From contig LWCA01000230.1 in NCBI GenBank assembly GCA_001642005.1, positions 1 through 38,143 of the forward strand: DNA of 38,143 nt, read 5' to 3'. This document shows, in pieces, positions 3,580-36,389 of this stretch. A model generated the notes under the pieces. The model saw only the letters and a list, made by a program, of their open reading frames with translations, had not been told where the DNA came from and made no database searches. The number at the start of each line of letters is the position of its first letter. The stretch's first letter is position 1. The DNA comes from Intoshia linei. Taxonomy: Eukaryota > Orthonectida > Rhopaluridae. A program made the position numbers and the translations under genes.

Positions 3580-6500
3580 CTACAATAGAAATAATAATGA
3601 TACCAATATAAATTTAATGCGGCTCTAAAACAGGTTTAAATTAGCATTGAAAAGCGTGTCTTAATTTTGAGAATTTTTTTAATATTGACGTTAAATGACC
3701 TTTTTTATTTGCTTAATTTCGGTATAAAAAATGGTTTATAAAGGCACCTGTCAAGCATGGTTGGTATATAAAAATATTTATACTACAATGTATTTCAATA
3801 ACTTTGTTTTTGATAAATTATGTGAAGTTTTTCAAATTAGGATTACATATTACAATATTGTAGTATTAATAGTTTTAAAAGATTCTTCATCATATTTTAA
3901 GTTCATTTATGATATACGGTATATGATTTATCATATATGTTTTCTATAGAAAAGAAGAAAAAATATTAAAAAATACAAATAATCAAATTTAATGTTTTTT
4001 AAAATAATACGTGTATTGTTGCTTAATTATTTATATCAATTTATCTCTGCAATTTTCAGATTAGTACTTGCTTCAACCCCTTCACTTTCACAATTAAACT
4101 TGTGAGAAAGTCGTTCAATGTTTAAAATGTTGTCATGTGGAACATTTAATAATAATATACCAGGGGTGGCTTAACAGGTCGATCCCGAAATTTTTTGAGT
4201 CGATCGCTGAAATATAAAATAAAATAAAACGTTAACAGATATGAAAAGTAGTATTGATTCTTTTAAAAACACAATTCCTTTAATAATTAATGATCTCAAT
4301 TAAAAAAATTTAAATATTTTTCCAATATCACCAATTTTTGTAAAGATAACCCTAATGTTAATATTAATTGTGATAAATTTATTACTGAAATAAAAATTGT
4401 TCCACAAGATTTCAACAAAAGATTAAGTAATTTTCAAAAAATAAAAGATATATTAGAATATTAATTATCATTTCAAATCTGACGTAAATACAAGTTATAT
4501 TTTAAAAAAAAATCACTTATTTGATTTTGTTTGCGATAAAATAGAAATTGCAAATTGTATCATTAAAATCTGATCTATTTTTAAGGGCTCATTCTATGGA
4601 TAACGATTTCTGGAAATATGTATCCAAAGAGAAATACAATATAATTAAGATGTGTTCAGAATATGTTCAATCATGTTTCGGTTCGACATACTTATTCGAA
4701 TCAGCGTTTTCTGTAATGAACTCAATAAAATCGAAAAATCGGTCGTCCCTTACTGATAAAAACTTGGAAAATTTAATTAAATTATCCTTGTCAAATTACA
4801 CTCATAATTTTAATAAACTAGTAAATGACACAAAAATACAACCATCTCATTAATGATTAAAAGTAAATATTTCAACTAATTATTAACTAACATAAATATT
4901 TTAGTAATGCAACGAAAAATTTGGATTTTTTTTAACTATGAAGTGTATTTAATTTATATAATAAAATTTTTATATTTTTTAATTTATATTATAATGTCAT
5001 ATTACTTATTAAAAATCAGTATAATCGATTGCTAGTATTTAAAAAAAATATAAAGTCGATCTCTAAAAAATCAAGTTGGCCAGCCCTGTAATATACAATT
5101 ATAGACATTTGACCACTTATATACTACGCTTGTTAATATATAATAATTATATAGTACAATATTTCATTATTTAAAAATTAATATTTCTAAATAAATGACA
5201 TTTTTACCTTTTCTGAGGGGGGTACATATGTTATTTCGTTATTTTCTCTAAAAAAAAATTTTAAAATAAATAATTATATACAGTCAATCCTGTTCAACAT
5301 GAAAATCAAAATTGATAAAATTTCGTACGCTCATGTTCAAATTTAACGGGATTGACTATATTGAAATAAGAATCACGCAAAGATTAAATTAAAAAATCTC
5401 AATTTAAAAATGAAATAATATAAATAACCTATATTGATATTTCATTTCACCAAAAACAGTAAGCATAAAATCTCCAATTTCATCTGGTTTATATGAGGTA
5501 GGAATAATACAATATTCTCCTTCTTCTAATTCAAGACGCATAACTACATCTCTGGAATTTTGGTATTTTGACTTACCAAATGATGGATTATGACTAAAAT
5601 AGTGTCTATCCAGTAGTTTGTTTTTATACTTGTCTTTAATCTATAAGAGTATCATCATTTTAATACACAACCTTTTAAAACTACATATTATTTAAATATT
5701 AGTCATCAAACAAAGATTCGAACGATTAAGGTTTAATTATTAAGGGTTTACAATTTAAAGAAATAACTGACATGATTTAGAAAAATAAGTTATCTCCGTA
5801 TTAAATATTTTTAAAAAAAAATCGCACGGACGGATAAAATCATGCAATAAATTTAAATTATATACAAAATTTTAAATTTTAATTTTAAAAAACAAAGGGA
5901 GCAAACGATGAAATGACTGAACTAGTGGTGGGAGAATCATTCGCACCATAATCGTCCCATAGCGAGACTTGACATTGCCCAGTGCATATGTTAATTTATA
6001 AAAATTTTATTATAATTTATCAAGTCGCAGTGGATTGTTGGAGTGGCGGTTCGACACTACAAATATTTAATATTATTACCACCGGAACCAAATTTTAAAA
6101 TTTTTTTCATGTAATATTGTAATTAAAACCTTATAAATCATAAAACCGATTGACAATCTCCGATCCACATTATTTAATTTAGCCAATTTTTGAGTTAAAC
6201 AAATTATAATTGTTTGATTTTGATTCCTAGTCTGATTTTTAGTTTGATTTTCTTTTTTAATATCAAAATTTTGAACTTTAACAATGTATTGAGGATTTGC
6301 CCAGAAAGTTTCTAGTAAAGAATTAATTCACACAAGAAATAAAAACCATTAAAATTTCGACAACCACCAGCATTAATTCCACTAATCCAGTTTCCACTAA
6401 AAGTGTGTTTTTCCCAATAACTTTCAATACATTTATTTTGTTTAGTTGAATAAGGAGGACACAAAGAACAAATATCAACTTGAGTAAAATTTTCAATAAA

Positions 6501-16483: not shown

Positions 16484-19095
16484 TTATTTGCACACTTCAA
16501 TAAAATTCTGAATGAGAATTTTAATATTTTGATTTTTAGAAAAAAATTTAAATTGACACCGATTACTGAAAATATTTTTTTCATTGACAAGTGAAAGAGA
16601 TTGCTGAAAATCTTCATTTTCTTCCATTTCATAATTTTCTACATTATCAACATAACAGTAATTACCCATCATAAATTTGACATGTAAACAAGGGTACTTG
16701 CTAGAAATTTTATTCAAAATATCCGAGTAGTTTAAATACAATACATTTGTAAAAAGAGAATAAAAAAAAGATACAAATTGATAAATTGATTGAAATAATG
16801 TAGAAAAGCTGAATTTGAAATTTTTTTTAAAATATTTTAAAAAATTGAATACTGTTGGAAATATGAGTTCGCCATCTACAATTAGTCCAATTATCATTAA
16901 ATTATTCAAATTATTTTCAATCTTTTTTTGGGTTTTTAAATTTGAATTATTATAGATATTACGATTTTTGAAATGTGCTGTTTTAGGTCTATTTTTATTA
17001 TTTGGTATATTTTCAATTGAATCAGACTCACTTGACGTGTAATAACAATCTGTTGATATTGAACCCCACGAGTTATCCAGAATTTGAAATTCATCATCAT
17101 CCATGTCAGAATCAATTTCCTTTACACTTTCAAAACAAAAAGTATGACTTTTACGTTGTGTAATGTTAGACTTTTTACAAATTTTGGATTTTTCATTTTG
17201 TTTTATTTCAGGTATATATGCTGTTTTATATTTGCCATCGGATTCCTCCTTTTTTAATTGTTTCCAGTTGCCCTTCTTTTCATTCATTTCACCAAAAAAG
17301 TTTTGGAAAAACATCATGCTGATTGGACCTCTCAAATGAAATACAATATTATGGCCTACAAAATCATATTCATATAAAATTTCAATTAAACGATCCGTGT
17401 AAAAATTGATCATATTCACATTAAATATATTCGATTCTTGGACAATATAAGCTAGCACAGTATAACTAAATAATTTAATTAAAAATTTAATAATAAAAAA
17501 AAAAGTAATCTTTATTTTTTAAATGTCTCATTATACATAATTATATAATAAAATTACTTTTTTTTAAGATAAATGCTTTTGTAAACGGCACTTTTTGCAA
17601 ATTTATCGTCTCCGATAAAAATAACCAATTTTTCATTTACTATATTTAAAAATGTAAATATTTATAATACAAACTAATTCCTCGTTAACGGAATAATTGG
17701 TCCAGAAAAAAATCTCACTCGGTTACGAGGATTTTTTTGGGAAAACATTCTCGTTAACGAAATTTTTTATAAATAATGCATATATTAAAACAGTGGTTCT
17801 CGATTGGGGTTCAAAATTATATGACTGGGGTTAGTAAGATTCAAATAAAATATGGAAAAATTTTAATCAACTTTTATTTATTTTTATAGAAGAATTTTTA
17901 TTATTTATTACCGAGTTTCTAGATGTTCATTACCCCGAAGCTTAGATGACCGCTACATTATTATTTCAAAAATCCCACTTTTATCCACCATTAATAAACT
18001 TTAGTCAAAAATACCATTTTAAGCCCTAAAGAAAAATCCGATTTTACGAAATCATATGAAAAAAATTAACTTAATCAAAACCACAAAATAAAAAATCCAT
18101 TTTAATAACCCTTAAGGTAAAAATACCCCTTTTTCCAATATTTTTTTGCAAAACACGATTTTACCAAATTTTATGAGAAAAACCTCTTATTCCAACCCCA
18201 AAATAAAATCCAATATTATCAACGCTTTAGGGAAATACCCTCTTTTTCCAATATTATTTTGAAAAATACGATTATACTAAATCTTATGAGCAACAACTTT
18301 TTAATCAAAAACTCAAAATAAAAAATAAAATTTTAGCAACCGTCAATCAAAAATTCTTCAATTTCAAATATTTTTTTGAAAAACACTATTTTACTAAATC
18401 TTATGATGAAAAACCTTTGAAATTTTTTATCAATGTTTTATATTTCATGTTTTCCTTGGGCTCCAAAAAAATAAATATTTTGAAATGGGGTTCGTAAACT
18501 ATTTGAAACGAATACTATTGCATTAAAATAATGAAAAGATTTTAATTTCAATTACTTAACATATATTTGCAGGTATATATCAAAAAAAAATAATTTTTTT
18601 TACATCTTAAAGTTTTAGTATAATTATGATGCTAATCATTTTAAGTTAAAATTTAACGGAACTTTTTGTACTTTAGAAAAAAATTAAATAAAATTCATAG
18701 TCCGTTATTCAGGATTTTTTTTTTGGATAACGAGGAATTCAGTTAAATAGGAATTAGCCTGTATAAATGTAACATAATCGTCCTTACCGATTAAATAGTG
18801 TCCAACCACCAATTTTATAAATTTTTATTTAAAATAGCCAATCAAAATAATAATAAACTATTGAGTTTATAGATATGTATGGTAGATACTATATATCCAT
18901 ACAGTTTATATATAAAAATTTTTGAAATGCGAATACAGCACATATTTTGATAAGTAATGCTAAAATAAAGGCGGCCCATATATACTAATATATACAATTA
19001 CCTTCAATTTGAAGATGGACATTTTGATAAACATTCTTTGATATTTTATTTTCGGGGAAAGTAATAATATAGTCATCATCCTCAAAATTAGCCAT
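16484..19095 (-). CDS. Unrecognised protein, three exons, 385 aa, acidic low-complexity middle
   Basis: Exons 19095-19002 (MANFEDDDYIITFPENKISK), 17639-17558 (NEKLVIFIGDDKFAKSAVYK) and 17465-16484. All junctions keep phase (GTA and AAT codons are split), with GTAATT donors and AG acceptors. The third exon continues with YTVLAYIVQES and HNIVFHLRGPISMMFF, then a charged Ser/Asp/Asn-rich stretch (about residues 115-240), then hydrophobic strands. The strand-helix-strand start with a late RGP motif faintly recalls longin-type trafficking proteins such as MON1/CCZ1, but this is not an assignment. Intron 17640-19001 carries a Tigger-type element split by a hAT MITE. The stop is TAA at 16484-16486. 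Confidence 0.7.
17670..18761. mobile_element. Tigger-type element split by a hAT MITE
   Basis: Left end CAAACTAATTCCTCGTTAAC. Right end on the other strand CAGGCTAATTCCTATTTAAC. TA lies on each side (17668-17669, 18762-18763). The interior ACGAGG/CCTCGT motifs repeat. About 730 bp of its length is the later hAT insertion 17791-18520, leaving roughly 360 bp without coding capacity. Its left end is 28 bp upstream of the acceptor of exon 17639-17558. Confidence 0.75.
17791..18520. mobile_element. hAT MITE (family A), 730 bp, with internal tandem repeats
   Basis: Left end CAGTGGTTCTCGATTGGGGT. Right end on the other strand CAATAGTATTCGTTTCAAAT. Flanks TATTAAAA (17783-17790) and CATTAAAA (18521-18528) match at 7 of 8. 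The interior at 17940-18420 is about three to four units of roughly 120-130 bp, each with CCCAAAATAAAAAA.CCA and CCCTTTTTCCAATATTTTT. It is inserted in a Tigger-type element. Confidence 0.88.
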
Positions 19096-20713: not shown

Positions 20714-23700
20714 CTACATACCATATATTGGTTTTAGAAAGGGTACTAGAGAGGTTCATATGCAAAAATATTTTTTTAAAATATACCAGTACAAATAATT
20801 GAAATGTAATCTCTAAAGCAAAAGTGGGCAACCTTATGATGGTCACGGTATAACCTCACAAGGAAAGAGAAAAACACAAGAGAAGTATAAAAGAAAGATA
20901 TATAATACTTTTTTATCCTGATAAATTCTGATAATTTGGCAAATCAAACACATTAAAAATTTAACTAATAACGTTCATCGTACCACGCGTGGCACGTGGT
21001 AACCGTGGAAATAGGTGTATTAATGAATCTTTATTCATATTTTCTTATCCTATCAAAGAAATTTTTCATCAAATCACAATTAATCCTTGATAATTAATTA
21101 ATAAAATAATTACTACCGCTGTTAGTACTTAGAAAAATGACTGTGGATTAAAAAATGAAATCTATGGACATATAAAAATTAAAATAAAATCATTGGTGTA
21201 GGTTGTCCATTATTGCTCTAAAGGAGATACACAAAAATATAAAAAATGTTGCATCATAGATTATATCAGTGTTTCTTAAACATAGCTATACAGACCCCAC
21301 TTTCAATAAAAAGTTTTATAATTTAATTTAACATTATTTAAATTAAAAAGTTTTGGTGTTTTAGACCGGGAAGATAATTTCAGACGTTAAAAATTTTTCT
21401 CAATAAAATGAAAGAAGTCTGTCTTGGAAGTTGTAGTAATTACGTTTTTTTAAGTTGTAGGAATTTTAATTATTCAATATTAATTGCTATTTGCCAAATT
21501 TTGGGTAATAAAATGGTAATTTGAGTTCTTGATATTAAAGACGCAAATTTCTGAGAATTCAATTTATAATAAAACACTCACTGGAAAACACTTATTAAAA
21601 TTATTTAAATTTGTGTTATTTTTCTATTGGGTATTGTCAAGTATGATTGATAAGCTTTTCTAACATATCTATATTAGAAAGTTACACATCCCTGATATAA
21701 AATAAAATGTTAAATGTATACGTTATATATGGCGAAAAATTGATTCGTAAAATTTGTAGTACATGTTCGAAAAAAATGTAAATGTATTGTCCATTGCAAT
21801 CTAAATAATTAAAATGAAATATCAGTATTATTAATAGTGACTATAACAGTGATTCTCAATTTGTGATCCGCGGGCCATTTTGAAAATACTTTAAAAAATT
21901 TTGTTTTTGTTTAAAAAAATCTATGGAAAAATTAAAAAAAATGGGAATATTCAAAAATTGCAAGAACACATTGTCTGAAAAATATAGTTTCATTTTTCAC
22001 CGTTGGCTACTTTTGAATTGATTAAAAAAAGATAAATTCATTTTTTTTCAAGATCAACTGGGATAAAATGTCTCAAACTAATTTTATTTACAATGACAAG
22101 ACTATTAATTGATTAAATAATTAGTAAAGTGTTTTCTTTGCCGTAATTAATCCTTCATTTTTAGGAAGCAAAGTTTTCTGAATGTTACCTGGGAATATTG
22201 TATTAGTGACAAGTTATGACTCATAACTTTTTTTAAAAAAAACGGGATTTAAAGTTTTTTCCGTGGATACTCAAATGTATCTTAATTTTTGGTCGGATAA
22301 AGCTCACCCATAAATTTTGTCTGTAAATTTCTGGGATTGTCAAGTTTCTAAATAAATGTTTACACATACAGAAAGATGTACATTTTTAGCAATTTGTAAC
22401 TTATGTAATTAAGAATATATATATTAAAAATTTTCAACTAAAAGTTGAGAATGACATATACAATGACATTTAAATTTTCTTAAACATTACGTATTGTAAC
22501 GGGATTAGGACAAACTAATGAAAAATTTGACGTAATTTCATTGTTCTTCAAAACGGAAATATTTACTAAAAAAATATAAAATTATGTAATTAATAAAAAT
22601 TACCATCTGTACAAAGCAAAGTACACTTTGCTTCATAAAATATATGAACAAACAACAAGGGAGATTTTGTCAACAATGAAAATTTGTCTAAAATATGTAA
22701 TACAATAACATTAAAGCAACATAAATAATAAAATATGTATTTTAAGGGAAGTTTTTTTTCATGCAATTTTTATAGACTTTGAAGATAATATTGGGACTAA
22801 CATTTGGTAGGGTTTTTAAGGGAAGTTTTTTTCACCAAATTTTTAATGGTTTTGAAGATAAGTTTGGTCCCAAGATTTGGTAGTGTTTTTAAGGGAATAT
22901 TTTTAACATTTAACGTTAGGATCTTCAAAATTGTTCCCTTAAAAACCCTACTAAAATTGTGGCTAAAAAAGGGTTAAAAACCGTACCAAGTTTTGGACCC
23001 AAAATTATCATCAAAATCTTTAAAATTAAGTGAAAAATTAATATGATAAATTATTAAAATCTATGATTATGCAGCTCTAAGATGTATCGCTTAAATGAAT
23101 ATAGCTCTAGAGCAAGGGTTCTCAACCTTTTTTAAAAATTGCCCCCTCCATAATTCATAAACAAGTTTTTATTTACTCAATTTTTTAAAGAATCCGTCCA
23201 TAGAACCAATAATTATCTTAAAAAAAATTGTAATACTTTTGTATGTTATTTTAGACATTGGAAAGCATTAACAACATAGTAAAATAAGTTAATTAACAAC
23301 ATAAAAAATGTTATTTTAAATATACAGTCAATTTAACCAACAGCAATTACATTAAAATTTCTTGTTCGTTAAAAAAAAGTTAACGAACAAACAAAATTCA
23401 TTTTTAATTCATTTATTTTTTTATAAAAATCACATATTGTTTTGGGTCTTTTTTTTAATATAGTTTCTTTCACTGTTTGTAATGCGATTAGGCCATTCAA
23501 GTTTCAAAAATAAAGAACTTTTCTAGTTTATCAATACATTCTAGATATAATGTCATCTTCTATGTCGATTTCACTACAGGTAGAATAACCAATGCTGTCT
23601 TTATGATTGGTGTCTTCTTCTATAAGCGGTATCAAAGAATCGATGAATTCATCGTCACTATAGTCGTTTTCATCATACGCACGGAATTCATCTGTGACAT

Positions 23701-26700
23701 TTCCATTATTTTCCACAAGATTTATCACTATTTGATAAAACGTATGTTCTAGAATTAGAATTTTTAAAAAACAGGCCTGTCTCATCGCAATTATAAATCT
23801 CAATATGACTATATTTCTCTTTACTTCTAAAAAAATCTGAAAAAGTTTCAAATTCACTTATATTAACAACACCTGCCTCACCACTAATAACACGAGAACG
23901 AATATTATGACGTTTTTAAAAACACGAAAACCAACCATTTGAAGCTCTGAAATTGGGTTTTTTTAGCCGTTTTCCGATTTTAAGAGCCATTGTTTGAATC
24001 GTATTTCCTGAATAATAAAATTTTTCTATCTCTTTCGAACAAACCATTCATATATGGTTTTTCAATTTCAGCCGTTGCAAAATTAAAAAAATGGGTTTGT
24101 CCTCAATAAAAATAAATAAATAATAAAAATAAATAATTTTTTTTTTAAGATTTTAAAAAGTTTGTTCGTTAATAAATTTAATTTTTTATAGTAATTGTAT
24201 ACCCATAAATTATTAATATTTTGTTTTTTCGTTAAAAGATAGGTTTATCATGTTGTTCGTTAAATTGAGGTTTGACTGTACTGCTAAATATCGATAAATT
24301 AATAATTCACTATCAGAAAATTGTATTAATAAGATTTTAATTTTTCAAATTATAATTTATAATAACAAATTTATAATTTATTAACTCTTTTTAGAGATTA
24401 TTTGTTAAAATTTTTAAATAAAGTATTTTATGAAATAAAATACAAAAATCGCCCCTATATTATAATTTCGCGCCCGATGGGACAATTCGCTCACAGTTGA
24501 GAATCACTGCTCTAGAGTATATAATCCGATTCAAATAGTGTACATTTCATTTGTTTCATTCATAGAACCATCATTTCAAAATATTTCTTTTTTTGGACCA
24601 AAAGAAACTTGAAATATACAACATTTATGAAAAAATTAAAAGTTTTTTCTCGTAAGATTTGGTAAAAGCGTGTTTTTCAAAAAAAAATTTGAAAAAGGTG
24701 ATTTCCCCCTTAATTTAGGTTGGTAAAATTGGATTTTTTATTTTGGATTAAGAAGTTGTTACTCATAAAATTTGGTCAAGTTGAATTTTTGAAAAAATGT
24801 TGGAAAAATCCTCTTTCTAATAAGTTAGGTTGATAATATAGGATTTTTTATTAATATTGATATTAATAGTGGGATATTTTAATTAATAATGTAGCGGTCG
24901 ACTAGGTTTTAGGATAAATTCACAACATCTGGCTACTTTGTAATAAATATTAAAAATTTTAAAATTAACTAAAGTTGACAAAATGTTTTGTACATTTTAT
25001 TTGAATCTCACGGACATTCAATGAATTCATTGAATTCAATAAAATGATTTTTTTCCAATAATCTTTCTATTAGGAATAGATTTCGTACATATTAAAAATT
25101 AATTCTTTGCGATATTTTTAAACTAATAGGTGACACTGAAAAAGGGTTGGGCGACTAGTGGTTTAATCCATAACTAATATGAACAACTGCTGCATATTAT
25201 AAAATTTCATATATTTAAAAAATACCAACATAGCTAGCTGATCCACAATCATAAGTCACTAAATTATTGTCACAACAATTTAAAAATGTATCATTATTTT
25301 TGTCAAAAATAATAAATCGTGAAACATGTTTAGATTCAAAGCTTTGAATAAGTTTAAATTGAATTTTTTTAGAATCTAAAAGGTATAAATGTAGACTTTC
25401 AGTAGTTTCGACAAATAAATAAAGACATTTTTCATGAGAATGAAACCCAAATTCCATTGTGACCACACTAGAATCAAATTCCTTAAATGGTAGCCTTACA
25501 ATTGAACAATGTTTATTAGATTCTTTCTTTGAAATTGAAGCAACATCAGCAAATTTGATGACATAGATAATTCTTTTAACTCCTGCCACAATAATAAGTA
25601 ATGAAAAATGAGCATCAAATTTAATTTCATGTATAGATTCGAAAGAATCTACCGCAAATAAATTTTTGTTTTGGGTGCAATACAAAAATAAATTGTTATC
25701 TCCTCCGATAGCCATATAATTTTGAGGTAATAATGTACAGCAAGTTAAACAAGTATTTTCAAAACTTTTTACAATACAATCACTAGATATTTTTTGATTT
25801 AATAATACGGTGCATAGTGGAGACATTAATTGAAACGATTGTTCAAGTGATTGAAAATTCAATACAATAGTCGGATATTCACCAGTCAAAGGAAGTATAG
25901 TGAATTGATCAATGCATTTAATGACGACGTAAATTTTTTTATCATAATCTTTCCCGACACATGTATAATAATAAATAATTTTAGCGACATGGGTTAAATC
26001 AAATGTTTTTAGACATTTTTGAGTCAATTGACCTTTTCGTAGTTCATAAAGCATCATTTCATAAAATGACAAATTTACCATACATTCAATAAATGATTCA
26101 TTTCTTTTGATTCGACATGAAATTTGTCGTGAAAAATTTTTACATTGATCAACTTTTATCGATTTATCAAAATTAACCATAAAATCGGAATTAACAATTT
26201 CACCATTGCATTTCGTACGTAGTTGATCCACACAATCGACATGAATTACGATACCACATTCTAAACATTTCGCCGCATTATTTACAAAATAAACTGGTTT
26301 CATGCAATTCATACACGTCTGTGTTTTGCAATTTAACCCTCGTTCAATCACATGATCATTGTGACAGTCGGGTTTTTCGAATACTTCACAATTTTCAATT
26401 TGTTTGTTTACGCTTTGAGAATTTTCGCTAACTGTAAAAACATGGAATTAAAATATATAAAATAAAAAATAAATATACGGTATTTATCTTTTATTGATAA
26501 TTTCTTTTTTAATTTTTCAATTTCCAGGTTCTTTTTTTGCAATTTCAATTCCAGCGATCTGACGGTATCCATTTTTTTTAAAACAATTTTTTTCGAAAAA
26601 AACTAAATTTAAAAAATAAAATTTACAAAAATAAATATATTTATATTACGGCCAAAATATTTCTTTTAGGTTTAGAATCAATTTTTTCATGAAGAAAATC

Positions 26701-29700
26701 AATCAACTTTATATGTTGTTGACCAACAGTTTTTAATTTTATTTGTTCTTCCTCGTTGGCCAACTAAATATAAAAAATTAAAAGTCTTCAAAAATGCATG
26801 TTTTACTTTTACAAGTTCCAATTTATTTTTGACGTTTAGTATGTCTTTTTTTAAAAGTGTACTTTCTTCTTTAAAGTTTTGCAAGTTTAATTTTAAATTT
26901 ACATTATCTTTTTTTAAAGTATGATTATTTAGAATAACATTGTTGAGTTGAATTTTATAATTAGTGTTATCGTCATTCAAATTTTGAATTTTTTTAACAT
27001 TTTCATAAATTAATTTTTTTGAATTTTCCAAATTTAATTGTAACAGTTCATTTTCTTTTGATAAAATTTCTTGTTTATTGTTTAAAAATTTTGAATAATT
27101 TGTTAATTTTTCCAATCTTTTTTTACTACAGTTCAATTCATCTTCAACTTTTTGAAAATTGTTTAATTTTTTTTCAAATAATTTTCTAAATTATAATTAT
27201 AATGATTGTAAAAATATTACATTTTAGTCATTTTTATCATACAATAATCAATTGTGACAAGAAATCAAATCAATTATACAAATAAAACTCAAGTTTTCTA
27301 ATAGTTTTTTTACCAGTTTGTGAAAAGATTTATTTAAATTTTAATTAAGAATACTTAGTAATTAAAATCTAATTGTTAAAAAATTTTTGAAAAGTAGTAA
27401 AAATATATTTTTCCTCAATTTTTTAAATTTGAGGGAATAATGGGAAATCGGATAATAATTAATCTAAAACATGTGTCTTTTATAAAGGAAATAATGAATA
27501 TAATTACATTTTTGATTTTTGCGCAGAAATTACTTTTGTTTGATCTTTAATCGTACATTCATCTTTTCCGGATTCAATTTTTAAATACTTTCTAAGTTTT
27601 AATCAAAAGTTTCAGAATACATCTTTTCATATTTCCATCATAAAAATTTTAAATAACGTAAATATAAATCAGTGTTTCCCAACCTTTCTTATGCTAGGCC
27701 CCACTGAAAAAAAATTCGAGAGAATTATAATAAAATAATAATAAAAACAATAATAATGTATTTATTTTTTAGAATTAATGAGACAATTGAGCCTGACGAT
27801 TCTGACAGAGTTTATTAATATTAGGTACTAATGTTGTAAGCTTTAATCGTAGATTATTTTTTTTGTCAGTAAGTCTAAAACTGCACTAAACCCGTATTCT
27901 GCTAAATAAGAGGATGGAAATGGCAACAAAGCAATCCTAGCAAAAGTAATTAAAGTCGGATAATTTTGTAAATTTGCAAATTTGGCATTTTGCATATACT
28001 CGTCAATTTAGTTAAATTTGAATTCAATAGCCCACGATCATTAAAGATATATTTGTTTTTTGTCATTCTAATAATTTAATAATACAATTAATTGGTTCAA
28101 GTATCACATAACCATTTATAAACCGTAAAATATTGTATAAAATTAACAATAAATTAATCTAAAGTTTCATAATCCTATACATTTATAATATTTCCCAGGA
28201 CCCACCAAAAAGTCGTAGGCCCCACCAAATTTCCAATGCCCCACTAGTGGGGCCTGGCCCCACGGTTGGGAAACATTGATATACATATAATATAAGTTAA
28301 TGTTATAAGAATTGTACGATCTATATGAAAATTTGAGTCCCGCTCCACAGAATTTTCAGTCCTTCTAAAATGTATACCCCCAGGTTCACATTTAAAGTCA
28401 GAAAAGGAAATAATTGAAGAAGAATACTCATTAATTTTATAATTTAAATACTCTTTTTCCTCAAATTTTTTAATTTTAGCAGAAAATTCCAACATTTTCG
28501 ATTCATACTCGGATAATTGATATTCTTGTTCATTAATCATTGTCAATTGTCTTTTGATTTTCTAAATAATGATAAAATTGATATTTAATTACTACAGCTT
28601 TAGCTTGGCTGTTTTGTACTATGTACAAACAGCACCTAGCTCTGAAGAGGGCGGATATTTTTAATTTAATCAAAAAAATTAAATCATCCATAAAAATGCA
28701 ACTATTCAATATTAACAATGCTTTAAAGGAGTGGGACCCAAACGTGTGTTATTACATCATTTTTATTTTTAAATTATTATCATTTTAGAATCATTAAATA
28801 TATCAAATGTTTTAATAAAATAATTTCCATAAAAAAAGTGTAAATAGTAAATTTCTTTTTTGAACATAAAGAATTAACTTAACATTAAAATATATTATGT
28901 ATACTTTTTAATTAATTTTAACCAAGTAAAAAGTGACACTCAATAGCGTCATTGTATCAGGTTTACATTTTAAAAAAATTTTTAGTACCACCAAATAGAC
29001 CACCCTTCATTATGACAGGATGATAAAAAAAATTAACACTTTCGTTTAATTAACATAATTGTAATTATAAATATATACATTTATATATATTATACCGTCA
29101 TCATTTTTTCGCGATCCAAATTCTTTTCCTCAGAATCTTGTAATTTTTTGTTTACAATGTTAATTTCGTCTTTATATTTATTTTTGAGAGATTCTATTTC
29201 AATTGTATATTCATTTTGAATAGATTCTAATCGCATCGATTCACTATTTTGTATTTTTTTATTTAACAATTTTTTCTAATAATAATAAATAAATTAACAA
29301 TAGACACTATACCTCATCCAAATCGCACCTCAATTCAAGTACAATCAATCGTTGTTGATCAGCCTCCTTTTTATAACTTCGAACTTCCTTTTTTAAGGAT
29401 TCAACATTATTATTATCAATAGTTTCAGTTAGAGTTAATATTTTCTTCTTTTGTAAAGCAATTTTTAAAATTTTTTCGTTCAATACACATTTTATTTGAT
29501 CGACTTCATTATTTTTACTATCTGCATAATATGAAATTTCACTTTTGAGATTAGAATTATCGGTTTTAATTTCGTCCATTTCGGTCAATAGCTTCTCAAT
29601 TTTTGTTTCAAATGCATTATTAATAGATTCGCTATGAAAAAATTAAGATACATAATTATAGTTTGTATATATCAGTGTTTCCCAACCTTTTTTACTACAT

Positions 29701-32700
29701 TACCCATATTATAGTACTTATTTGGATATTACCCACTATATTGTTTAACTACTTTTTGGATAATCAGGTTTTTAGAATAAGCCATATAAATTTTTTAAAA
29801 AACTAATTTTACAAAATAGTAAAATAAAGGGGAAATTGTGTTTTTGACCCAGAAGGACTCAATGGGAAAAATTATATTTCATACGTTACTGTGCATGCGG
29901 CGCAAAAAAATAACAAAATTCCTATTTTTTTAGAACAAATTTCGCGATTACCCATGAAAAATATCAAATTACACACTGGTGGGTAAATACCCACAGGATG
30001 GGAATCATTGTTCTAGATGGTTAATAAAAATATAATATTAAAGTTAGATTTACTTGGAGGACTGATCATAGGGAAACCCTGATATAAGCTACATATAATA
30101 ATCATATTTGTGAGTATAATTATAATTCAAGTACAGTATTCACTACACAACTCGCCATTAATTTAAAATATAAACTAAAAGTTTTAAAACCATTTTTCAA
30201 AATAAGTTAAGTTATTTTGTATTACAATTTACATTTTATTGCAATGTAACCCTTAATTAAAGGTTTTATCTGCTGTTTCTATAGTTTCAAATTCTCAATC
30301 TCGCCAAATTTTTCTAAATCCCAAGAATGGCGAGTTATAGAGAGAATACTGTATATAAAAATGTAATAAAGTAATGTTTTTCAAAATGTTACTTTATAGC
30401 AAACATAATACATGATAAGTACTCCGGTCGCGGGTTTCGAATATTTTAATAAAAATTAAGGAAGGTCAATAGACCAGATTCATATCGATATTAAGATAGA
30501 TATTTAAAAAATTCAAAGTTCAGTTTTAAGATTTACAGCATAACCCCTTATAACTAAAATCATAGAATTAATAAACAAAAGTTTTTACATTTCACAACCC
30601 TTTCATTTTTGCAGACCTGTGAAAGTGAAACGATATTTTGTTAAAAAGGTAAATGTTATAAATTATATATGAAAATGTAACCCTCTAACTTTAAATGGTA
30701 TTCGAATTGCTTCCTTGCAAGCGATTTTTCCAAAAATTTTTCATAACATTTACATTTTAACATTTTGTACATATTAATCAGGAATAGTAGAAACCGGACC
30801 GGCGGTTGAGAAATGGTGATCTATCTCAATCTTTAGAGCACTGATTCTTAATCGGTGCACCGCGGCGCACTTGTGCGCCATGAGTAGAGTTGATGTGTAC
30901 CGCAAAGAAATTTGACGTTATTTTATAAATTTTTAAAAATTAGTGTCAAACTTTTACATTGACAATTCTTTAATGAATATTTAGGGTTTGACTAATTAAT
31001 ATAATTTATATATATTAAATACTATGGTGAGTACCAAAAATATCAATATTTCATCATACATAAAATCTTCTTGACTAAATTTAACTGATCAAATAAAAAG
31101 TATTTGGGTATTATTATTATAACTTTATCGTTTTTAATCTTTATACATTTATTTATACATTTTAGAATGTCGATGTTTTCTTCTCATCAAAATTTAAGGT
31201 GTGCTCAAATTTTTATTTATTTCACAGGTACTCTTGAAGTAAAAGACGTTAAAAAATATTGATATAGATGGAGCGGAGAGCATTTGATTTAATATGTAAA
31301 CTTTAACTTATGCTACTATAATAACTGTGGCATTACTAATTCATTAGTAGCACCAAATAACAATAATGTATAATGCTCAGTAGAATTTATACTATAATGT
31401 TTATAATCGTGAATTGTTATAATTATAATTAAATTACAGCTTGTTTATAAATAATGAATTATTATTTTCTGTCACAGATTGTATATCAACATCTCGGTCC
31501 TTCAATTCCTGATCAAATTGTTCGAGTTTTGTCAATTGCTTCTTTAATACTCGGTTTAAATACTAAATATCAAAATTAAAATGTTTGTGAATATTACAAT
31601 TAACTATTAATAAAAGTATAAATTTTACAACAGTCATGTAAAACATACAAAGCGTCATGAAGTTTGATTTCACATGACTCATTTACAAGTTAATACGTGT
31701 CTTAGAGCAGAGTTTCTTAACCGTGGACCCAAAAATATTTTTCGACAGTGTTATTTGATTCAAATTTTTATTTTTTTAATACACATGCATTAAAGTAAAT
31801 TTCCTTAAAAATGTCCATGTCAAATATCAATCCTAGATGTGAACTACTCTTCCAAAAAAATATCTCAAAATTTAGACTCTAAATGTAAAGTCAAGATAAT
31901 TTTTGTATTTCGGTTCGAATTATATATTAATTATACATAATTATAACAGGGTGGTCCAAAAGACATGGCGAGTGAAAGCCGAAAAATATATTTTACACAG
32001 TTATTTTTCATCAGTAAGTAATGATGGGCAATGTAATAATTATATTTCTGTAAATAAATTTTTTCAAACGGTACGCTCTGGCGCATTTGTGCGTCCCAGT
32101 AAATTTTATGTGTGCCAAGCTAATAATTGAAAATGAGCTATACACCCTTTTACAAAGGGTCACTTAACCCAGATTTTTTTTCTTAAATTATTAAAAAACT
32201 CCAATTTGGGTAAAAATCAAAATCAGAAAATCTAGTTCGAAATTCCACGTCATATTCAATCACATATTTATTTTTTATTATTTACTTGTTTTACAAAATA
32301 TGTTACTAATAAATTTCGCGGGGCATACAATTTGATCTTGCGGACCACGCTTTGAGCCACCATGTATAATATTATAAATAAACCTCGTTATCCACAATGT
32401 ATACATTAATTTTTTGATTCAGAGACTCATTTTCTGTTACAAGTTTATTTAATTGATTTTTATACAAATTTAACTCAAATTCCAATTTTTGAATTAAAAT
32501 CCCTCTCTCATTATTTTTTTCATCTTCAATATTTGTATCAGATATTTGAAGTTTTTCACAATTCAAATTTCTAAAGTAAACATTCAGTTTTTGTATAATT
32601 ATTGTTAAATTATTTATTTAATTAACTTGGGATAATTCTCAAACAGAATATGACATACAAGGGTAGTCGTCAGGGATTGGAAATAATTGAAATTAATTAT

Positions 32701-35700
32701 GTTTTTAAAGTAATTGCAAAAATAAAAATAGAAAAATTTTTTCACGACGAAACATTGCATCAACTAATATATTTAAATTTTTTTTATGTGAAGCTAAAAT
32801 TTAATTTGTTCATTATTAATATTTCAACACTCATTGATTTTGTGGAATAATAGTAGTCAGACCTCTCATTGAGAGTTTGTCAATACCGCTATTTTAGTGT
32901 TTCGATATTTATGGCGGTATTGAGGGTTTAGCGTTGTTGAGAGTATATCGTTGTAGCGAATATATCATGGATACTGTTATTATGTATTAATAATCATTCA
33001 CATAGTAAAATAATAATAAAATGAAAGTTCATTCATCCCACAAATGCGTTTTTTAATTTAAGTTTGTAAATTTAATTAGGGTTTGATAAAATATAATTAA
33101 AATTAGATTAATTTTTTTAAAATAACAGTTGAGATTAAAATATTTATAATTTTAAATTAAGGATTAAACTCATTTTAATCAAATTTTTTTTTAAAATATT
33201 TGAAAATTTTGGCGGTACCTACAATCCATGTACAATGTAAATTATATAAGGTCAAGCCATCAGTTGACATTTGCGCTTTGTTGATATTGAAAAAAACAAA
33301 AAATCTTTATCATTATCAATATTTTGATTGGCTTCTCTTTATTTATCTTTAAATTTCAAAACTGACTTTAAGTAAGTTTAACTTTTTATCAGTAAATTTT
33401 TTTATCCAATTCAAAGATTTTAAAGATAATTTTTCCACAACAATTTTGTAGGTTTTAAATTATTTCAGTCAATTTTTAATAATGTCACTCTATAAATACT
33501 TCATTCAGCTGATTCGCCCATTTGAAACCGATAAAAATTATTTTTAAAATATTTAAAAATAATATTCCCTTAAAAACCATGTTGAGAGCATTAAAAAAGA
33601 AATTAATTTAAAACCACAATGAGTCAATCAAAAAATTTGTTATTTTCAGTGAGAACGTACTAATTAATAATTAATTTAAAAATGAAATTACCTTTCGAGA
33701 CATTTTCTGAAAAACCGGTTAAAAGAAAATCCAATTAAATTAAAATTAACAAAATTCAAAACATCTTTATTCAATTCTCTCCAGGAACTATAAATATTAT
33801 CAACATGAGAATTTTCTTGCAAATTTTCTTTGATATCTTGAATATTAAAACAATTCTTTATATTTTGATTTAAAAAAAAATCGTGTAGTAGAATTTTATG
33901 AAAATTTAAAATATTTGCATCATTGGTAAACAATAACTGATGAATCAAACTTTTGTAATCAGTATCATCAAATTCAATGCGATGATTAATATCTTTAACA
34001 CTTAAAATGCGACGTGTTGGTTTTCCGTACATTATCCTATATAAACATACGCCATAAGCATAAAAATCTGACTCAACTGTTGGTAAGTTTGGTTTCCCGT
34101 TGTTGTAATAATTTAATGACATGTAAAAAATATTTTCAATCATCTAATATGCTAAAATTAAAAAAAGGCTATAATTAAAAATTACCAAATGTTCTCTGTC
34201 TAAACGATTTTCATTCTTACAAATAGAATGTTCAAAATTACAAATTTTAAAATGACCAGTGGAAGAAATTAAAAAATTTTCAGGTATTATGTTTCTAAAA
34301 ATTAAAATATACATAATATTAATACTAATACTAGAATATCGTAATCCATTGAATAGTGTATAATTTATAATTATAATAAATATCCATAATAATGGCAGGC
34401 GTATATAAGACTTACATTACAAGTGGTCTCATATTTCATATATTAATTAAGAATCATCAAATTCAACATTACTTTTCAAAATACTGAAAAATTCTTTTTG
34501 ACGTTGCAATTATAGGGACACGATAAATCAGTGATTATCAAACTTTTTTAGAGCTCTTTTTTTCTCTTTTTTAATTGGCTTGTATTTATAGCGTCGTTAT
34601 TTTAATCCGTAAAGTGTCAGTATTTTAAATAGTTTGTCAGTTTATATAATAAATTGTCAGTATTTTAAGTGCCAGTTGACAAGATGTCAGTATAAATAAT
34701 TTATTGTCAGTCTTTAAATTAGAAGGGCAGTGAAAAAAATTATTTTGTCAGTACTTTAAATATACTGTCAGTATATCCTTGACTACACAGTATATACTGA
34801 CAAATATGTAATTAAATATTAACAAATGATTAATTAAGATGGAATAATTCAGTTTAAAGTAAAAATTAATCTGATATGATGGTTTCACTTGAAGCAAATT
34901 TGGGAACCACTACTTTAAAGGATTGATAATAGCGAAAAGTTCTATTTTTAAATTAGATTTTCAACGTGAATTTATTTTTTTGGTAGAATAAAAATGTGCC
35001 CTCGTGAGAGCTAGGTGCTGTTTTTACGTAGTACATAACAGTCAACCTAGCACTTTTATAAATGTAAGGATTATAAATTGTATAATATAATATAATACCC
35101 ATGTATAAACCCCAATTGGTGAAGTCCATCTATACATTTACCCATAGAATCAACATAAAATAAAAGATTTTCAAATTTGATTATTGGATTTCTTAATGAA
35201 TTAATTATACATTTCAATTAACATTATAAAAATATTTTAAATACTTAATTATAAAATTTTCTAAATTTCCTCCAATACAATATTCCATAATTAAATGAGC
35301 TTGCTTTTGATAAAAGAAAGAATAATACAATATTGGTAAAAAAAAATGATTTTCTGTTTTAGCCAAAATTTTTATTTCATTATAGCATTTATTGCTCTAA
35401 AAATAAAAAATTAGAAAAAATATATTGACAGGTACAGTACATAGTACATAGCATATACGCGTCACATAATTAGCATAAAATATATTTTTTTAATGTTGGA
35501 TCAGTTAAGTGTATATAATTTTTGATATTGAAGATGAATCTACTAAATTATTTTTCCGTAGTTTTGAAATAAAAAATATAATAAATTAAAAACTGAAAAA
35601 TTTTTAAAAAAAATGATGAAAAAATTCATTTACTGTGGATATAATCATCTAAAGGATTTAGAGAACTGACAATATAAATAAAAATATATAATTACAAAAA

Positions 35701-36389
35701 CGCCGTCGTTTAAAACATTGTCACGAGATGTGTGTAAAACTTGAGATATATTCAAATGATCACATATTATAGTTTTCATAACATAGATTGTATCACTTGG
35801 GTCTTTAACAAGATCAATTTGTGTCGTTTTCTTTTTACAAATTGTATTTACTTTTACAAAATCTGACAAAGAAATTGAAAATTTACTGAAAGATTCATAA
35901 ATATCGATATCTAATAGGTTATAATATACAAATATAAATTATAGGTTTATAACTAAATTATCAAAATATGAAAAAAGGTATTTTTACTAAACCATATATT
36001 TACTAATTTGTAAACTAAATAACGCATTTTCATAAAAATAATAATTCAGAAAAAAATCTAAAATTATTATCAGTTTAATTTAAACTTTAAAAGAGTTTTC
36101 ATTTACGAAATTGTTAAAATTGATTATTATCAAAGTTTAGTAAGAAAAAAAAATTATTTACAACTTTATATTATTATGAAAATTTAAAATTACAATTTTC
36201 TAAAAATTCTTTTCCATAAAAACCATCCGATTTTAAAAAATTAAAAATATTTGTAAATAAATCGATGAGAGATTCTTTGGATATGAGAAAATTTTTTCTG
36301 CTATTATATTCATTTACTTCACATTTTTTTAAAAGTAAATATGAATTGTAGGATTTCTCGTCTAGTGGTGCAAGTTTATAATTATCCAT
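20530..36389 (-). CDS. CIT: Citron-kinase-like protein with degenerate kinase domain (citron rho-interacting kinase family)
   Basis: Exons in transcript order: 36389-36194, 35910-35702, 35396-35245, 35191-35099, 34294-34186, 34143-33692, 32570-32384, 31562-31438, 29631-29313, 29275-29096, 28561-28428, 27185-26813, 26763-26650, 26602-26479, 26431-25226, 22687-22604, 22565-about 22486, 20713-20530. About 1440 residues, shorter than citron's roughly 2000, mostly in the coiled coil. Order: N-terminal helix, kinase fold, FNLIGFSF tail, long coiled coil, citron-specific QQHIKLIDFLHEKI segment, C1 zinc finger, CNH. Citron acts at the midbody in cytokinesis; here only a scaffold role is expected, since the catalytic residues are lost. 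All junctions keep phase except the last, so a small exon or different donor remains to be found near 20714-22485. The ATG at 36389 follows an acceptor-like TTTTAG. Confidence 0.88.
20819..21215. mobile_element. hAT MITE, 397 bp, perfect TSD
   Basis: Left end CAAAAGTGGGCAACCTTATG. Right end on the other strand CAATAATGGACAACCTACAC. TSD CTCTAAAG is perfect at 20811-20818 and 21216-21223. It lies in the last intron of the citron-like gene. A GTACCACGCGTGGCACGTGG stretch with short inverted repeats lies inside at about 20980-21000. Confidence 0.9.
21267..21700. repeat. Probable hAT-like element, left end only
   Basis: CAGTGTTTCTTAAACATAGC at 21267 followed by CAGACCCCAC looks like a hAT end. 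No matching right end was found, so the extent is a guess. Confidence 0.3.
21847..22457. mobile_element. Probable hAT MITE, TSD not matching
   Basis: Left end CAGTGATTCTCAATTTGTGA with CCGCGGGCC inside. A possible right end on the other strand is TGTCATTCTCAACTTTTAG. The eight bases on each side do not match, so the right border is uncertain. It lies in a citron-gene intron. Confidence 0.5.
22486..22687 (-). CDS. CIT: Two CNH exons of the citron-like gene between transposons
   Basis: Exon 22687-22604 reads KFSLLTKSPLLFVHIFYEAK then CTLLCTD, aligning with citron's LLCFHEFGVF region. A 38-nt intron (22603-22566, GTAATT to TTTTAG) follows. Exon 22565-22486 reads VNISVLKNNEITSNFSLVCP. Entry phase from exon 26431-25226 is correct. 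The exit at 22486 (AAT|GTTTAA) does not match the phase of the terminal exon, so the 3' boundary is uncertain. Confidence 0.72.
22740..23041. mobile_element. Small foldback with tandem arms
   Basis: Two units of about 73 bp (TTTTAAGGGAAGTTTTTTTC ... TTTGGTAG.GTTTTTAAGGG) and part of a third are followed by the inverse (TTCCCTTAAAAACCCTACT ... ATCAAAATCTTTAAAATTA). It has the same architecture as 14660-15277 but a different unit. It occupies the citron intron 22688-25225. Confidence 0.65.
23325..24278 (-). mobile_element. pogo/Tigger-type element nested in a hAT element, 954 bp
   Basis: Left end CAGTCAATTTAACCAACAG. Right end on the other strand CAGTCAAACCTCAATTTAAC. TA lies on both sides (23323-23324, 24279-24280). 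Inner copies of GTTCGTTAA repeat near both ends. It contains a broken transposase. Confidence 0.9.
23531..24080 (-). pseudogene. Tigger transposase remnant, frameshifted and internally deleted
   Basis: In one frame the CENP-B/HTH part reads KKPNFRASNGWF, then (after an in-frame stop) KRHNIRSRVISGEAGVV. The start of the DDE core, NCDETGLFF, follows near 23765-23795. An acidic C-terminal tail (DENDYSDDEFIDS, SEIDIEDDIIS) at 23531-23720 is in a different frame. The bulk of the DDE core is missing, so the copy is inactive. Confidence 0.8.
24518..25170. repeat. Old family-A element remnant
   Basis: GATTCAAATAGTG near 24528, inverted internal repeats at 24640-24870, and GTAGCGGTCGACTAG plus TTTGAATCTCACGGACAT at 24890-25018 match 7503-8275 in order. 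The left end abuts the TSD of 23113-24509. A hAT-like end (inverse CACTAGTCGCCCAACCC) appears at about 25163. No TSD was found. Confidence 0.55.
25226..26431 (-). CDS. CIT: C1 zinc finger and first part of CNH domain (citron-like gene)
   Basis: A single 1206-nt exon. The C1 finger is complete: His, x12, Cys (MN) Cys, x12, Cys (LE) Cys, x4, His (VD) Cys, x7, Cys, with core KCLECGIVIHVDC close to citron's. A region of about 110 residues follows in the place of citron's PH domain, but it is too diverged to call. The CNH begins near CTLLPQNYMAIGGDNNLFLY and reaches SLLIIVAGVKRIIYVIKFAD and FIIFDKNNDTFLNCCDNN. An in-frame TAA occurs at 25215-25217, but the G|GTATTT donor at 25225 lets the CNH continue in the next exon in matching phase. 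Confidence 0.87.
26479..32570 (-). CDS. CIT: Coiled-coil exons of the citron-like gene
   Basis: Eight exons (32570-32384 to 26602-26479), about 480 residues of Lys/Glu/Asn/Leu-rich heptad-like sequence, for example LIQKLEFELNLYKNQLNKL and LRLESI/NKYKDEINIVNKKL. The segment from exon 26763-26650, TVGQQHIKLIDFLHEKIDSK, is the strongest family marker, matching the corresponding citron stretch just before the C1 domain. Introns 26764-26812, 26603-26649 and 26432-26478 are 47-49 nt. Those at 27186-28427, 29632-31437 and 32571-33691 are enlarged by transposons or unassigned sequence. The donor of exon 28561-28428 could instead be at 28451, giving the same phase. Confidence 0.85.
27670..28278. mobile_element. 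hAT MITE, 609 bp, 7/8 TSD
   Basis: Left end CAGTGTTTCCCAACCTTTCT. Right end on the other strand CAATGTTTCCCAACCGTGGG. Flanks ATATAAAT (27662-27669) and ATATACAT (28279-28286) match at 7 of 8. Strong GGCCCCAC subterminal repeats. It lies in the citron intron 27186-28427. Confidence 0.88.
28595..28740 (-). repeat. Conserved hairpin repeat, copy 3 (diverged)
   Basis: On the minus strand it reads TTTGGGTCCCACTCCTTTAA ... CAGAGCTAGGTGCTGTTTGT then AGTACAAAACAGCC, the order of copies 1 and 2. It lies in the citron intron between exons 29275-29096 and 28561-28428. Confidence 0.55.
28932..29010. repeat. Dispersed repeat, copy 2 (partner at 1919-2025)
   Basis: AGCGTCATTGTATCAGG, TTTACATTTTA, TAGTACCACCAAATAGACCA and CCCTT, in the order seen in copy 1. 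Shorter than copy 1 in the middle. Confidence 0.55.
29673..30010. mobile_element. hAT MITE, 338 bp, without matching TSD
   Basis: Left end CAGTGTTTCCCAACCTTTTT. Right end on the other strand CAATGATTCCCATCCTGTGG. Subterminal TACCCA motifs occur at both ends. The flanks GTATATAT and TTCTAGAT do not match. It sits 41 bp upstream of citron exon 29631-29313. Confidence 0.7.
30134..30351. mobile_element. Tigger-type MITE, 218 bp
   Basis: Ends CAGTATTCACTACACAACTC and the inverse CAGTATTCTCTCTATAACTC, flanked by TA (30132-30133, 30352-30353). The interior matches 7582-7824 closely, for example AAATATAAACTAAAAGTTTT and GGTTTTATCTGCTGTTTCTA. Confidence 0.87.
30839..31261. mobile_element. hAT-like MITE related to 3123-3388, 423 bp
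   Basis: Left end CACTGATTCTTAATCGGTG then CGCGGCGCACTTGTGCGCC. Right end on the other strand CAATATTTTTTAACGTC. Flanks CTTTAGAG and ATATAGAT match at 5 of 8. Shares CCATGAGTAG and GTACCGCA with the family at 3123. Lies in a citron intron. Confidence 0.65.
31708..32364. repeat. Composite repeat region with hAT-like ends
   Basis: CAGAGTTTCTTAACCGTGGA at 31708, and the inverse CATGGTGGCTCAAAGCGTGG ending at about 32364, could be opposite ends but have no matching TSD. Inside, GTACGCTCTGGCGCATTTGT at about 32070 resembles the 30839 element end. No coding exon was recognised. Confidence 0.45.
32571..33691. other. Citron intron, 1.1 kb, mostly unassigned
   Basis: Between exons 34143-33692 and 32570-32384. 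Contains the 42-bp hairpin at 32881-32922. A plus-strand open frame at 32650-32850 has no recognisable features. Confidence 0.6.
32881..32922. repeat. Perfect 9-bp inverted repeat (hairpin)
   Basis: CAATACCGC at 32881-32889 and GCGGTATTG at 32914-32922, preceded by CAGACCTCTCATTGAGAG. It resembles a transposon terminal region but has no identified partner. Confidence 0.5.
33692..36389 (-). CDS. CIT: Pseudokinase domain exons of the citron-like gene
   Basis: Six exons, residues 1 to about 404. The AGC-kinase layout is clear: SLSDFVKVNTI start, YVMK with the ATP-site Lys111, helix-C Glu in NEIKIL (142), hinge HLIMEYCIGGNLENF, FIHG catalytic loop, PENFLISSTGHFKI, FYAYGVCLYRIMYG helix-F region, and a VNFNLIGFSF tail like citron's ELPFVGFSY. 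The glycine loop reads ICKKKTTQIDLV with no glycine. HRD is HGN (216-218), so the catalytic Asp is Asn. The following Lys of IKPEN is Ile220. DFG is NFE (236-238). APE reads SLN. Lys111, Glu142 and Asn223 remain. Catalysis is very unlikely; nucleotide binding cannot be judged. Confidence 0.88.
34529..34912. mobile_element. Possible hAT-like element around the TGTCAGT cluster
   Basis: CAGTGATTATCAAACTTTTT at 34529 and the inverse TAGTGGTTCCCAAATTTGC at 34912 look like opposite ends, but the flanks CGATAAAT and CTTTAAAG do not match. The right end is also inside the conserved repeat 34868-35066, so this pairing is doubtful. Confidence 0.35.
34571..34830. repeat. TGTCAGTATTTTAAATA motif cluster, copy 2
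   Basis: GGCTTGTATTTATAGCGTC, then seven or more TGTCAGT units with TTAAA spacers, then the inverse ACTGACAAATATGTAATTAA. It matches 2128-2455 in start, unit and order. Lies in the citron intron between the HGN and NFE exons. Confidence 0.65.
34868..35066 (+). repeat. Conserved ~190-bp repeat with hairpin, copy 2
   Basis: Near-collinear with 11040-11240, both starting TGATATGA.GGTT. The end GCTAGGTGCTGTT ... AACAGTCAACCTAGC can fold back with a short asymmetric bulge. Copy 3 lies at 28595-28740. Function unknown. Confidence 0.7.

What the first reader, a model, noticed from the sequence alone, without database searches (positions are those of the whole stretch)
33692..36389. Citron-family protein whose kinase domain is a pseudokinase
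The kinase fold is conserved in order, but the glycine loop has no glycine (ICKKKTTQIDLV), HRD is HGN, DFG is NFE, the Lys of the catalytic loop is Ile and APE reads SLN. The changes fall in four separate exons, all in frame, so this is not one sequencing error. The VAIK Lys and helix-C Glu remain. The exons keep open frames and phases, and the coiled coil, C1 and CNH are intact, which suggests selection for a scaffold without catalysis. Citron kinases normally have intact HRD and DFG motifs.
Basis: partly seen in the sequence, partly recalled or inferred. Interest (0 to 1): 0.85.

Follow-up and report, generated by a model that had tools for sequence, protein, structure and literature searches.

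The report
Orthonectid citron with dead kinase domain
In the sequence held for a tiny parasitic animal there is one recognisable copy of the cell-division protein citron, and the part that is an enzyme in other animals has lost most of its catalytic residues while its reading frame stays open, so the protein probably works as a scaffold rather than as an enzyme.

Summary
The window is a whole contig of the orthonectid Intoshia linei; the gene is the deposited A3Q56_02467. Six exons (36389-33692, minus strand) join in frame into a domain matching Pkinase (E 4e-21) without the catalytic apparatus: no glycine loop, HRD is HGN, DFG is NFE, APE is SLN. The VAIK Lys and catalytic-loop Asn remain. 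Of 120 homologues 119 keep the HRD Asp and 120 the DFG Asp. Of 75 near-invariant columns this protein keeps 30, the same genome's ROCK 68. A citron-type linker and a C1-PH-CNH profile point to citron, not MRCK or ROCK. No second citron was found in the 34.7 Mb held and no pattern for an alternative exon. The CNH is not intact: about its second half is missing or unrecognisable. The whole gene is very divergent; dN/dS and expression could not be tested. Best reading: a citron pseudokinase acting as a scaffold, a parallel to the kinase-less citrons of C. elegans by another route.

The parts
36194..36389 (-). Exon A: start Met and the region before the kinase domain
   Evidence: gene model; same in deposited P0004
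35741..35862 (-). Exon B: glycine loop without glycine (ICKKKTTQIDLV) and VAIK-equivalent YVMK with the Lys kept; the deposited model makes it longer at both ends
35245..35396 (-). Exon C: helix C (YNEIKIL) to hinge (IMEYCIGGNLENF)
35099..35191 (-). Exon D: helices before the catalytic loop; its last codons give the H and part of the G of HGN
34186..34294 (-). Exon E: catalytic loop NIIPEN and NFE in place of DFG
33692..34143 (-). Exon F: SLN in place of APE, DFYAYG in place of DxWSxG, C-lobe and C-tail ending LIGFSFNR
26479..32570 (-). Exons G-O: coiled coil by eye; exons N (26763-26650) and O (26602-26479) carry the citron-type linker QQHIKLIDFLHEK...KPKR
   Evidence: gene model; linker profile
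25215..26431 (-). Exon P: C1 (8 of 8 zinc-ligand columns kept), PH-like stretch, first part of the CNH propeller, stop
22483..24102 (-). Stretch that the deposited model adds as 3' exons: a dispersed repeat with matches on 13 other contigs, plus two short exons; probably annotation error, possibly remnants of the CNH end

Best explanation
This is the one recognisable citron orthologue in the held genome of Intoshia linei, and its kinase domain is a pseudokinase. It keeps enough of a protein-kinase fold to match kinase profiles but should not bind Mg-ATP or transfer phosphate in the usual way, because the glycine loop, the HRD and DFG aspartates, the catalytic-loop lysine and the APE segment are gone. 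Shown here: the gene structure, the motif losses, the citron identity by linker and C-terminal profile, no other citron found in the held assembly. Inferred: the protein is made and acts as a Rho-pathway/midbody scaffold through its coiled coil, C1 and PH modules and a reduced CNH, with the pseudokinase as a binding or structural module; the phosphorylation steps that citron performs elsewhere are left to other kinases or are dispensable.
For: Spliced domain matches Pkinase E 4.4e-21 and MRCK beta E 1.6e-17. In 120 homologues HRD Asp 119, DFG Asp 120, second glycine 115 of 115 non-gap rows, VAIK Lys 115 of 115 non-gap rows; here N, N, K and K. In the 73 rows with the linker motif: HRD Asp 72, DFG Asp 73. 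ROCK of the same genome is canonical and keeps 68 of 75 near-invariant columns, this protein 30. Linker 23.8 bits, citron profile 46.3 v MRCK 4.4 bits. The five best Foldseek matches of the exon P model are the chains of the MRCK1 C1-PH-CNH module (E 2e-6 to 1e-5, TM about 0.3). No other citron seen in the genome. C. elegans has kinase-less citrons (PMC13108882, passages).
Against: The whole gene is very divergent (16.5% identity to starfish citron in C1-PH-CNH) and about half of the CNH is missing, so decay of the entire gene is possible. In human cells citron catalysis is needed for midbody organisation (PMC4821246, passages). No expression, binding or dN/dS evidence. The kinase tree cannot place the domain (end branch about 10). 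The linker motif in its exact form is absent from 19 of 87 long homologues, some named citron, so it is not universal in the family.
Confidence: 0.72

Rival explanations
1. A decaying gene: citron as a whole is under relaxed constraint in this reduced parasite and is on its way to being lost; the kinase domain went first and the CNH is following.
For: CNH reduced; C1-PH-CNH at 16.5% identity to starfish citron while 11 other citrons have 24.8-51.3%; a repeat copy lies just downstream.
Against: 1328 codons open without a stop across 16 exons with matching phases (a model chosen to be open); 8 of 8 C1 zinc-ligand columns kept; catalytic columns lost more often than other conserved columns, which free decay would not favour.
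Confidence: 0.2
2. A non-canonical active kinase or ATP-binding protein, working without the standard motifs.
For: VAIK Lys, catalytic-loop Asn and, with a one-residue gap, the helix-C Glu are kept.
Against: 14 of the 16 catalytic, nucleotide-binding and activation columns changed together.
Confidence: 0.06
3. An assembly, splicing-model or sequence error makes an ordinary citron kinase look dead.
For: Draft assembly; the ends of exon B differ between my model and the deposited one.
Against: The changes lie in four exons; the frames are open; the depositors' model has the same residues; no HRD, DFG, APE or glycine-loop pattern was found in three minus-strand frames between 33600 and 36450.
Confidence: 0.02

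Closest known systems
Citron Rho-interacting kinase (CIT-K / Drosophila Sticky)
   Same: Order kinase fold, coiled coil, KLIDFL linker, C1, PH-like stretch, CNH; C-tail end motif kept
   Different: Catalytic residues lost; CNH about half; 20-23% identity in the kinase domain
Kinase-less citrons CITK-1/CITK-2 of C. elegans and the mammalian CIT-N isoform (PMC13108882, passages)
   Same: Citron scaffold without catalysis
   Different: There the kinase domain is absent; here it is present as a pseudokinase
ROCK of the same genome (contig C1173)
   Same: Same AGC subgroup, kinase plus coiled coil
   Different: Canonical HRDIKPDN and DFG, 443 bits to ROCK1 of the PDB
Citron-like protein of the myxozoan Henneguya salminicola (P0052)
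   Same: A relative from another strongly reduced parasitic animal
   Different: Keeps the VAIK Lys and the HRD and DFG Asp

Membership tests
Citron | Domain order kinase, coiled coil, C1, PH, CNH | tested here: met
   C1 and CNH below Pfam's curated cut-offs, no Pfam PH match, the whole module matched by the citron profile and by fold; CNH partial
Citron | KLID[FY]L linker between coiled coil and C1 (recalled from human citron, then tested) | tested here: met
   73 of 120 homologues have it, 19 of 87 long ones do not; this protein 23.8 bits, 40 shuffles at most 6.3, ROCK and MRCK rows tried below zero
Citron | C-terminal module closer to citron than to MRCK | tested here: met
   46.3 v 4.4 bits; the MRCK profile had 3 rows, two of them near twins labelled MRCK by me; three citron trios gave 24.6-31.2
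Citron | Kinase domain branches with citrons | tested here: inconclusive
   end branch about 10 changes per column, place unsure; the best phmmer rows are citron-type, an MRCK-like row is seventh
Citron | Complete CNH propeller | tested here: not met
   I take it as a reduction within the family because the linker, C1 and the part of CNH present score as citron, so the claim is 'reduced citron orthologue'
Active AGC kinase | Glycine loop, HRD, DFG, APE | tested here: not met
Active AGC kinase | VAIK Lys | tested here: met
Active AGC kinase | Helix-C Glu | tested here: inconclusive
   present in YNEIKIL but one column off in the alignment
Pseudokinase | Loss of the residues needed for catalysis | tested here: met
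Pseudokinase | No catalytic activity in assay | not testable with these tools
   sequence prediction only

The most novel reading that the evidence does not exclude
Loss of citron catalysis is adaptive and tied to the syncytial plasmodium of orthonectids: a scaffold-only citron favours incomplete cytokinesis, so that catalytic loss of citron and syncytial growth evolved together, as loss of the kinase domain did separately in nematodes.
Probability: 0.12. Interest if true: 0.75.

Novelty: new variant of a known kind. Interest (0 to 1): 0.45.

Why it matters
What citron's kinase activity is for differs among animals: human and fly cells are reported to need it, nematodes have no kinase domain. 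A lineage that kept the kinase fold but erased its catalysis separates the scaffold role of that domain from its enzymatic role and offers a natural test of which citron functions need phosphorylation. It also shows that the database name for this protein ('protein kinase C') is misleading.

Tried and rejected
A second citron or an MRCK in the same genome: starfish citron gave 28 matches with E <= 1e-3 (26 of 70 candidates scored). I examined three contigs: C1173 is ROCK, C811 an NDR kinase, C1319 Akt-like by eye; the other matches were not classified. The only other CNH matches are on C1222 (a long ORF that reads like a Vps39-type protein by eye) and C904 (not identified); neither matched this protein. 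The held genome is 34.65 Mb and may be incomplete.

Alternative exons: none by pattern; motifs that span an exon junction would be missed.

A kinase tree to prove citron ancestry: the branch is too long. The first homologue search gave three distant kinases, the second this protein itself and two of those. INCENP (PF03941) was sought as a citron substrate: no match, but no control rang, so nothing follows. Anillin has one match. A link with syncytial life is weakened by Henneguya, whose citron-like protein keeps its catalytic residues (that myxozoans form multinucleate plasmodia is recalled).

In one search, 14 citrons were given; two (P0117, P0081) fell out because their C1 start was not located. 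In one search several C-terminal blocks were short, so I quote for that part.

Only exon P was folded (mean pLDDT 58.3).

Full report
What the window is. A search with the spliced protein returned P0004, 'hypothetical protein A3Q56_02467 [Intoshia linei]', with a UniRef name 'protein kinase C', on a contig of 38,143 bases, the length of the window. Intoshia linei is an orthonectid; [quoted passage not shown] The window is 24% G+C.

The gene. I built a 16-exon model on the minus strand from 36389 to 25215: 1328 residues, no internal stop, introns GT-AG, phases consistent. I chose splice sites by eye for open frame and homology, so openness of the joined frame is partly by construction; the share of intronic windows that are open (0.5-8% for A-E, 0 of 20,000 draws for F) shows that such exons are not what this DNA gives by chance. 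The deposited model has the same kinase residues, makes exon B longer at both ends, and adds 3' exons from a repeat with matches on 13 other contigs. With my exon B the VAIK Lys and the Glu of YNE are 18 residues apart (counted from the sequence).

The domain. Pfam Pkinase matches at E 4.4e-21, profile positions 19-198 of 263. The best solved relatives are MRCK beta (E 1.6e-17) and MRCK alpha, then RSK, NDR and ROCK1. PKA residue numbers below are recalled. A search with human citron gave 2523 proteins at E <= 1e-20, of which the best 120 were listed; those 120 were aligned with this protein and the I. linei ROCK. The length filter leaves out proteins longer than about 1876 residues, and at least eight rows are ROCK or MRCK by name or by my label. 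Of 120 rows: His164 118, Arg165 118, Asp166 119, Lys168 119, Asn171 120, Asp184 120, Gly186 120; Gly52 and Lys72 115 of 115, five rows having gaps. This protein reads H, G, N, I, N, N, E, K and K. The row without Asp166 is a fish isoform (P0032). In the 73 rows with the linker motif: Asp166 72, Asp184 73, Asn171 73.

Is this only fast evolution? The ROCK of the genome keeps 68 of 75 near-invariant columns and has an end branch of 0.9; the citron domain keeps 30 and has a branch of about 10. Catalytic, nucleotide-binding and activation columns: 2 of 16 kept here, 16 of 16 in ROCK; other columns: 28 of 59 here, 52 of 59 in ROCK; one-sided Fisher p 0.0098. I chose the 16 after seeing the alignment, so p is indicative. 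Against a kinase-only story, the C1-PH-CNH part is very divergent too: 16.5% to starfish citron, where 11 other citrons have 24.8-51.3%; in the kinase domain they have 46.5-63.4% and this protein 20.0%.

Is it citron? The linker QQHIKLIDFLHEK matches a profile from 73 homologues at 23.8 bits; 40 shuffles of the coil reach at most 6.3, and the I. linei ROCK and seven other rows (three ROCK, two MRCK, two unclassed) score below zero. The exact motif is absent from 19 of 87 long homologues, some named citron. A citron C1-to-end profile (12 rows) scores 46.3 bits, an MRCK one (3 rows) 4.4; citron profiles of 3 rows score 24.6-31.2. The exon P model (mean pLDDT 58.3; about 60-90 in the propeller part) has the five chains of the MRCK1 C1-PH-CNH structure as its best PDB matches, with low TM-scores of about 0.3. 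The eight C1 zinc-ligand columns are near-invariant with this protein included. The kinase tree is uninformative.

The CNH is not intact: the citron profile ends at position 375 of 577, and no stop-to-stop fragment on either strand of the contig continues it significantly (best E 1.8).

Other copies. Searching the genome with the deposited protein (31 of 45 candidates scored), the C1-PH-CNH part matched only this contig, and the only kinase-part match elsewhere was the ROCK. So no intact citron is visible that would make this a spare copy, within the 34.65 Mb held.

Function. CIT-K phosphorylates INCENP, and a kinase-dead form does not rescue localisation of the chromosomal passenger complex in HeLa cells although it localises normally; the isolated kinase domain binds passenger-complex parts weakly (PMC4821246, passages). 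Kinase-disrupting Cit variants in mice give binucleation without the small brain, and the authors conclude that catalysis and scaffolding both matter in human corticogenesis (PMC11527453, abstract). C. elegans CITK-1 and CITK-2 lack the kinase domain, their combined loss is reported as sterile and embryonic lethal, and a scaffolding role in neurons is suggested (PMC13108882, passages). I infer that the I. linei protein is a citron scaffold whose kinase-like domain serves binding or structure.

Print. Searches for citron kinase with pseudokinase (6 papers), orthonectid with pseudokinase (0), Intoshia linei with kinase (6) and pseudokinases, kinome, citron, AGC (2) showed nothing on this protein in their listings; of these papers I opened one (PMC3117856, passages). 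I did not look up the original genome paper; its citation was seen.

Noticed in passing
window 22483-24102: The deposited gene model A3Q56_02467 runs into a dispersed repeat (Tigger/pogo-like by eye; 23534-23857 has no Pfam match) with matches on 13 other contigs, so its 3' exons are doubtful.
   Followed up: partly
window 22483-22688: Two short deposited exons (KFSLLTKSPLLFVHIFYEA......FSLVCPNPVTI...) look by eye a little like the end of citron CNH; the profile search did not list them.
   Followed up: partly
window 6312-8588 (minus): Exons of a calpain: Peptidase_C2 E 5.8e-34 for 8202-8588, the others by eye.
   Followed up: partly
window 16484-17518 (minus): 344-aa open frame without a Pfam match at E <= 0.01.
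   Followed up: partly
window 4545-4853 (plus): Remnant of a hAT transposase C-terminal dimerisation region, E 1.7e-4.
   Followed up: partly
L038 (contig C1222) and L039 (contig C904): No MRCK was recognised among the matches examined; the only other CNH matches are on these two contigs, one reading like Vps39 by eye.
   Followed up: partly
P0052 (Henneguya salminicola): A myxozoan citron-like protein groups with a coral row and an unnamed row (97/94) and keeps its catalytic residues.
   Followed up: partly
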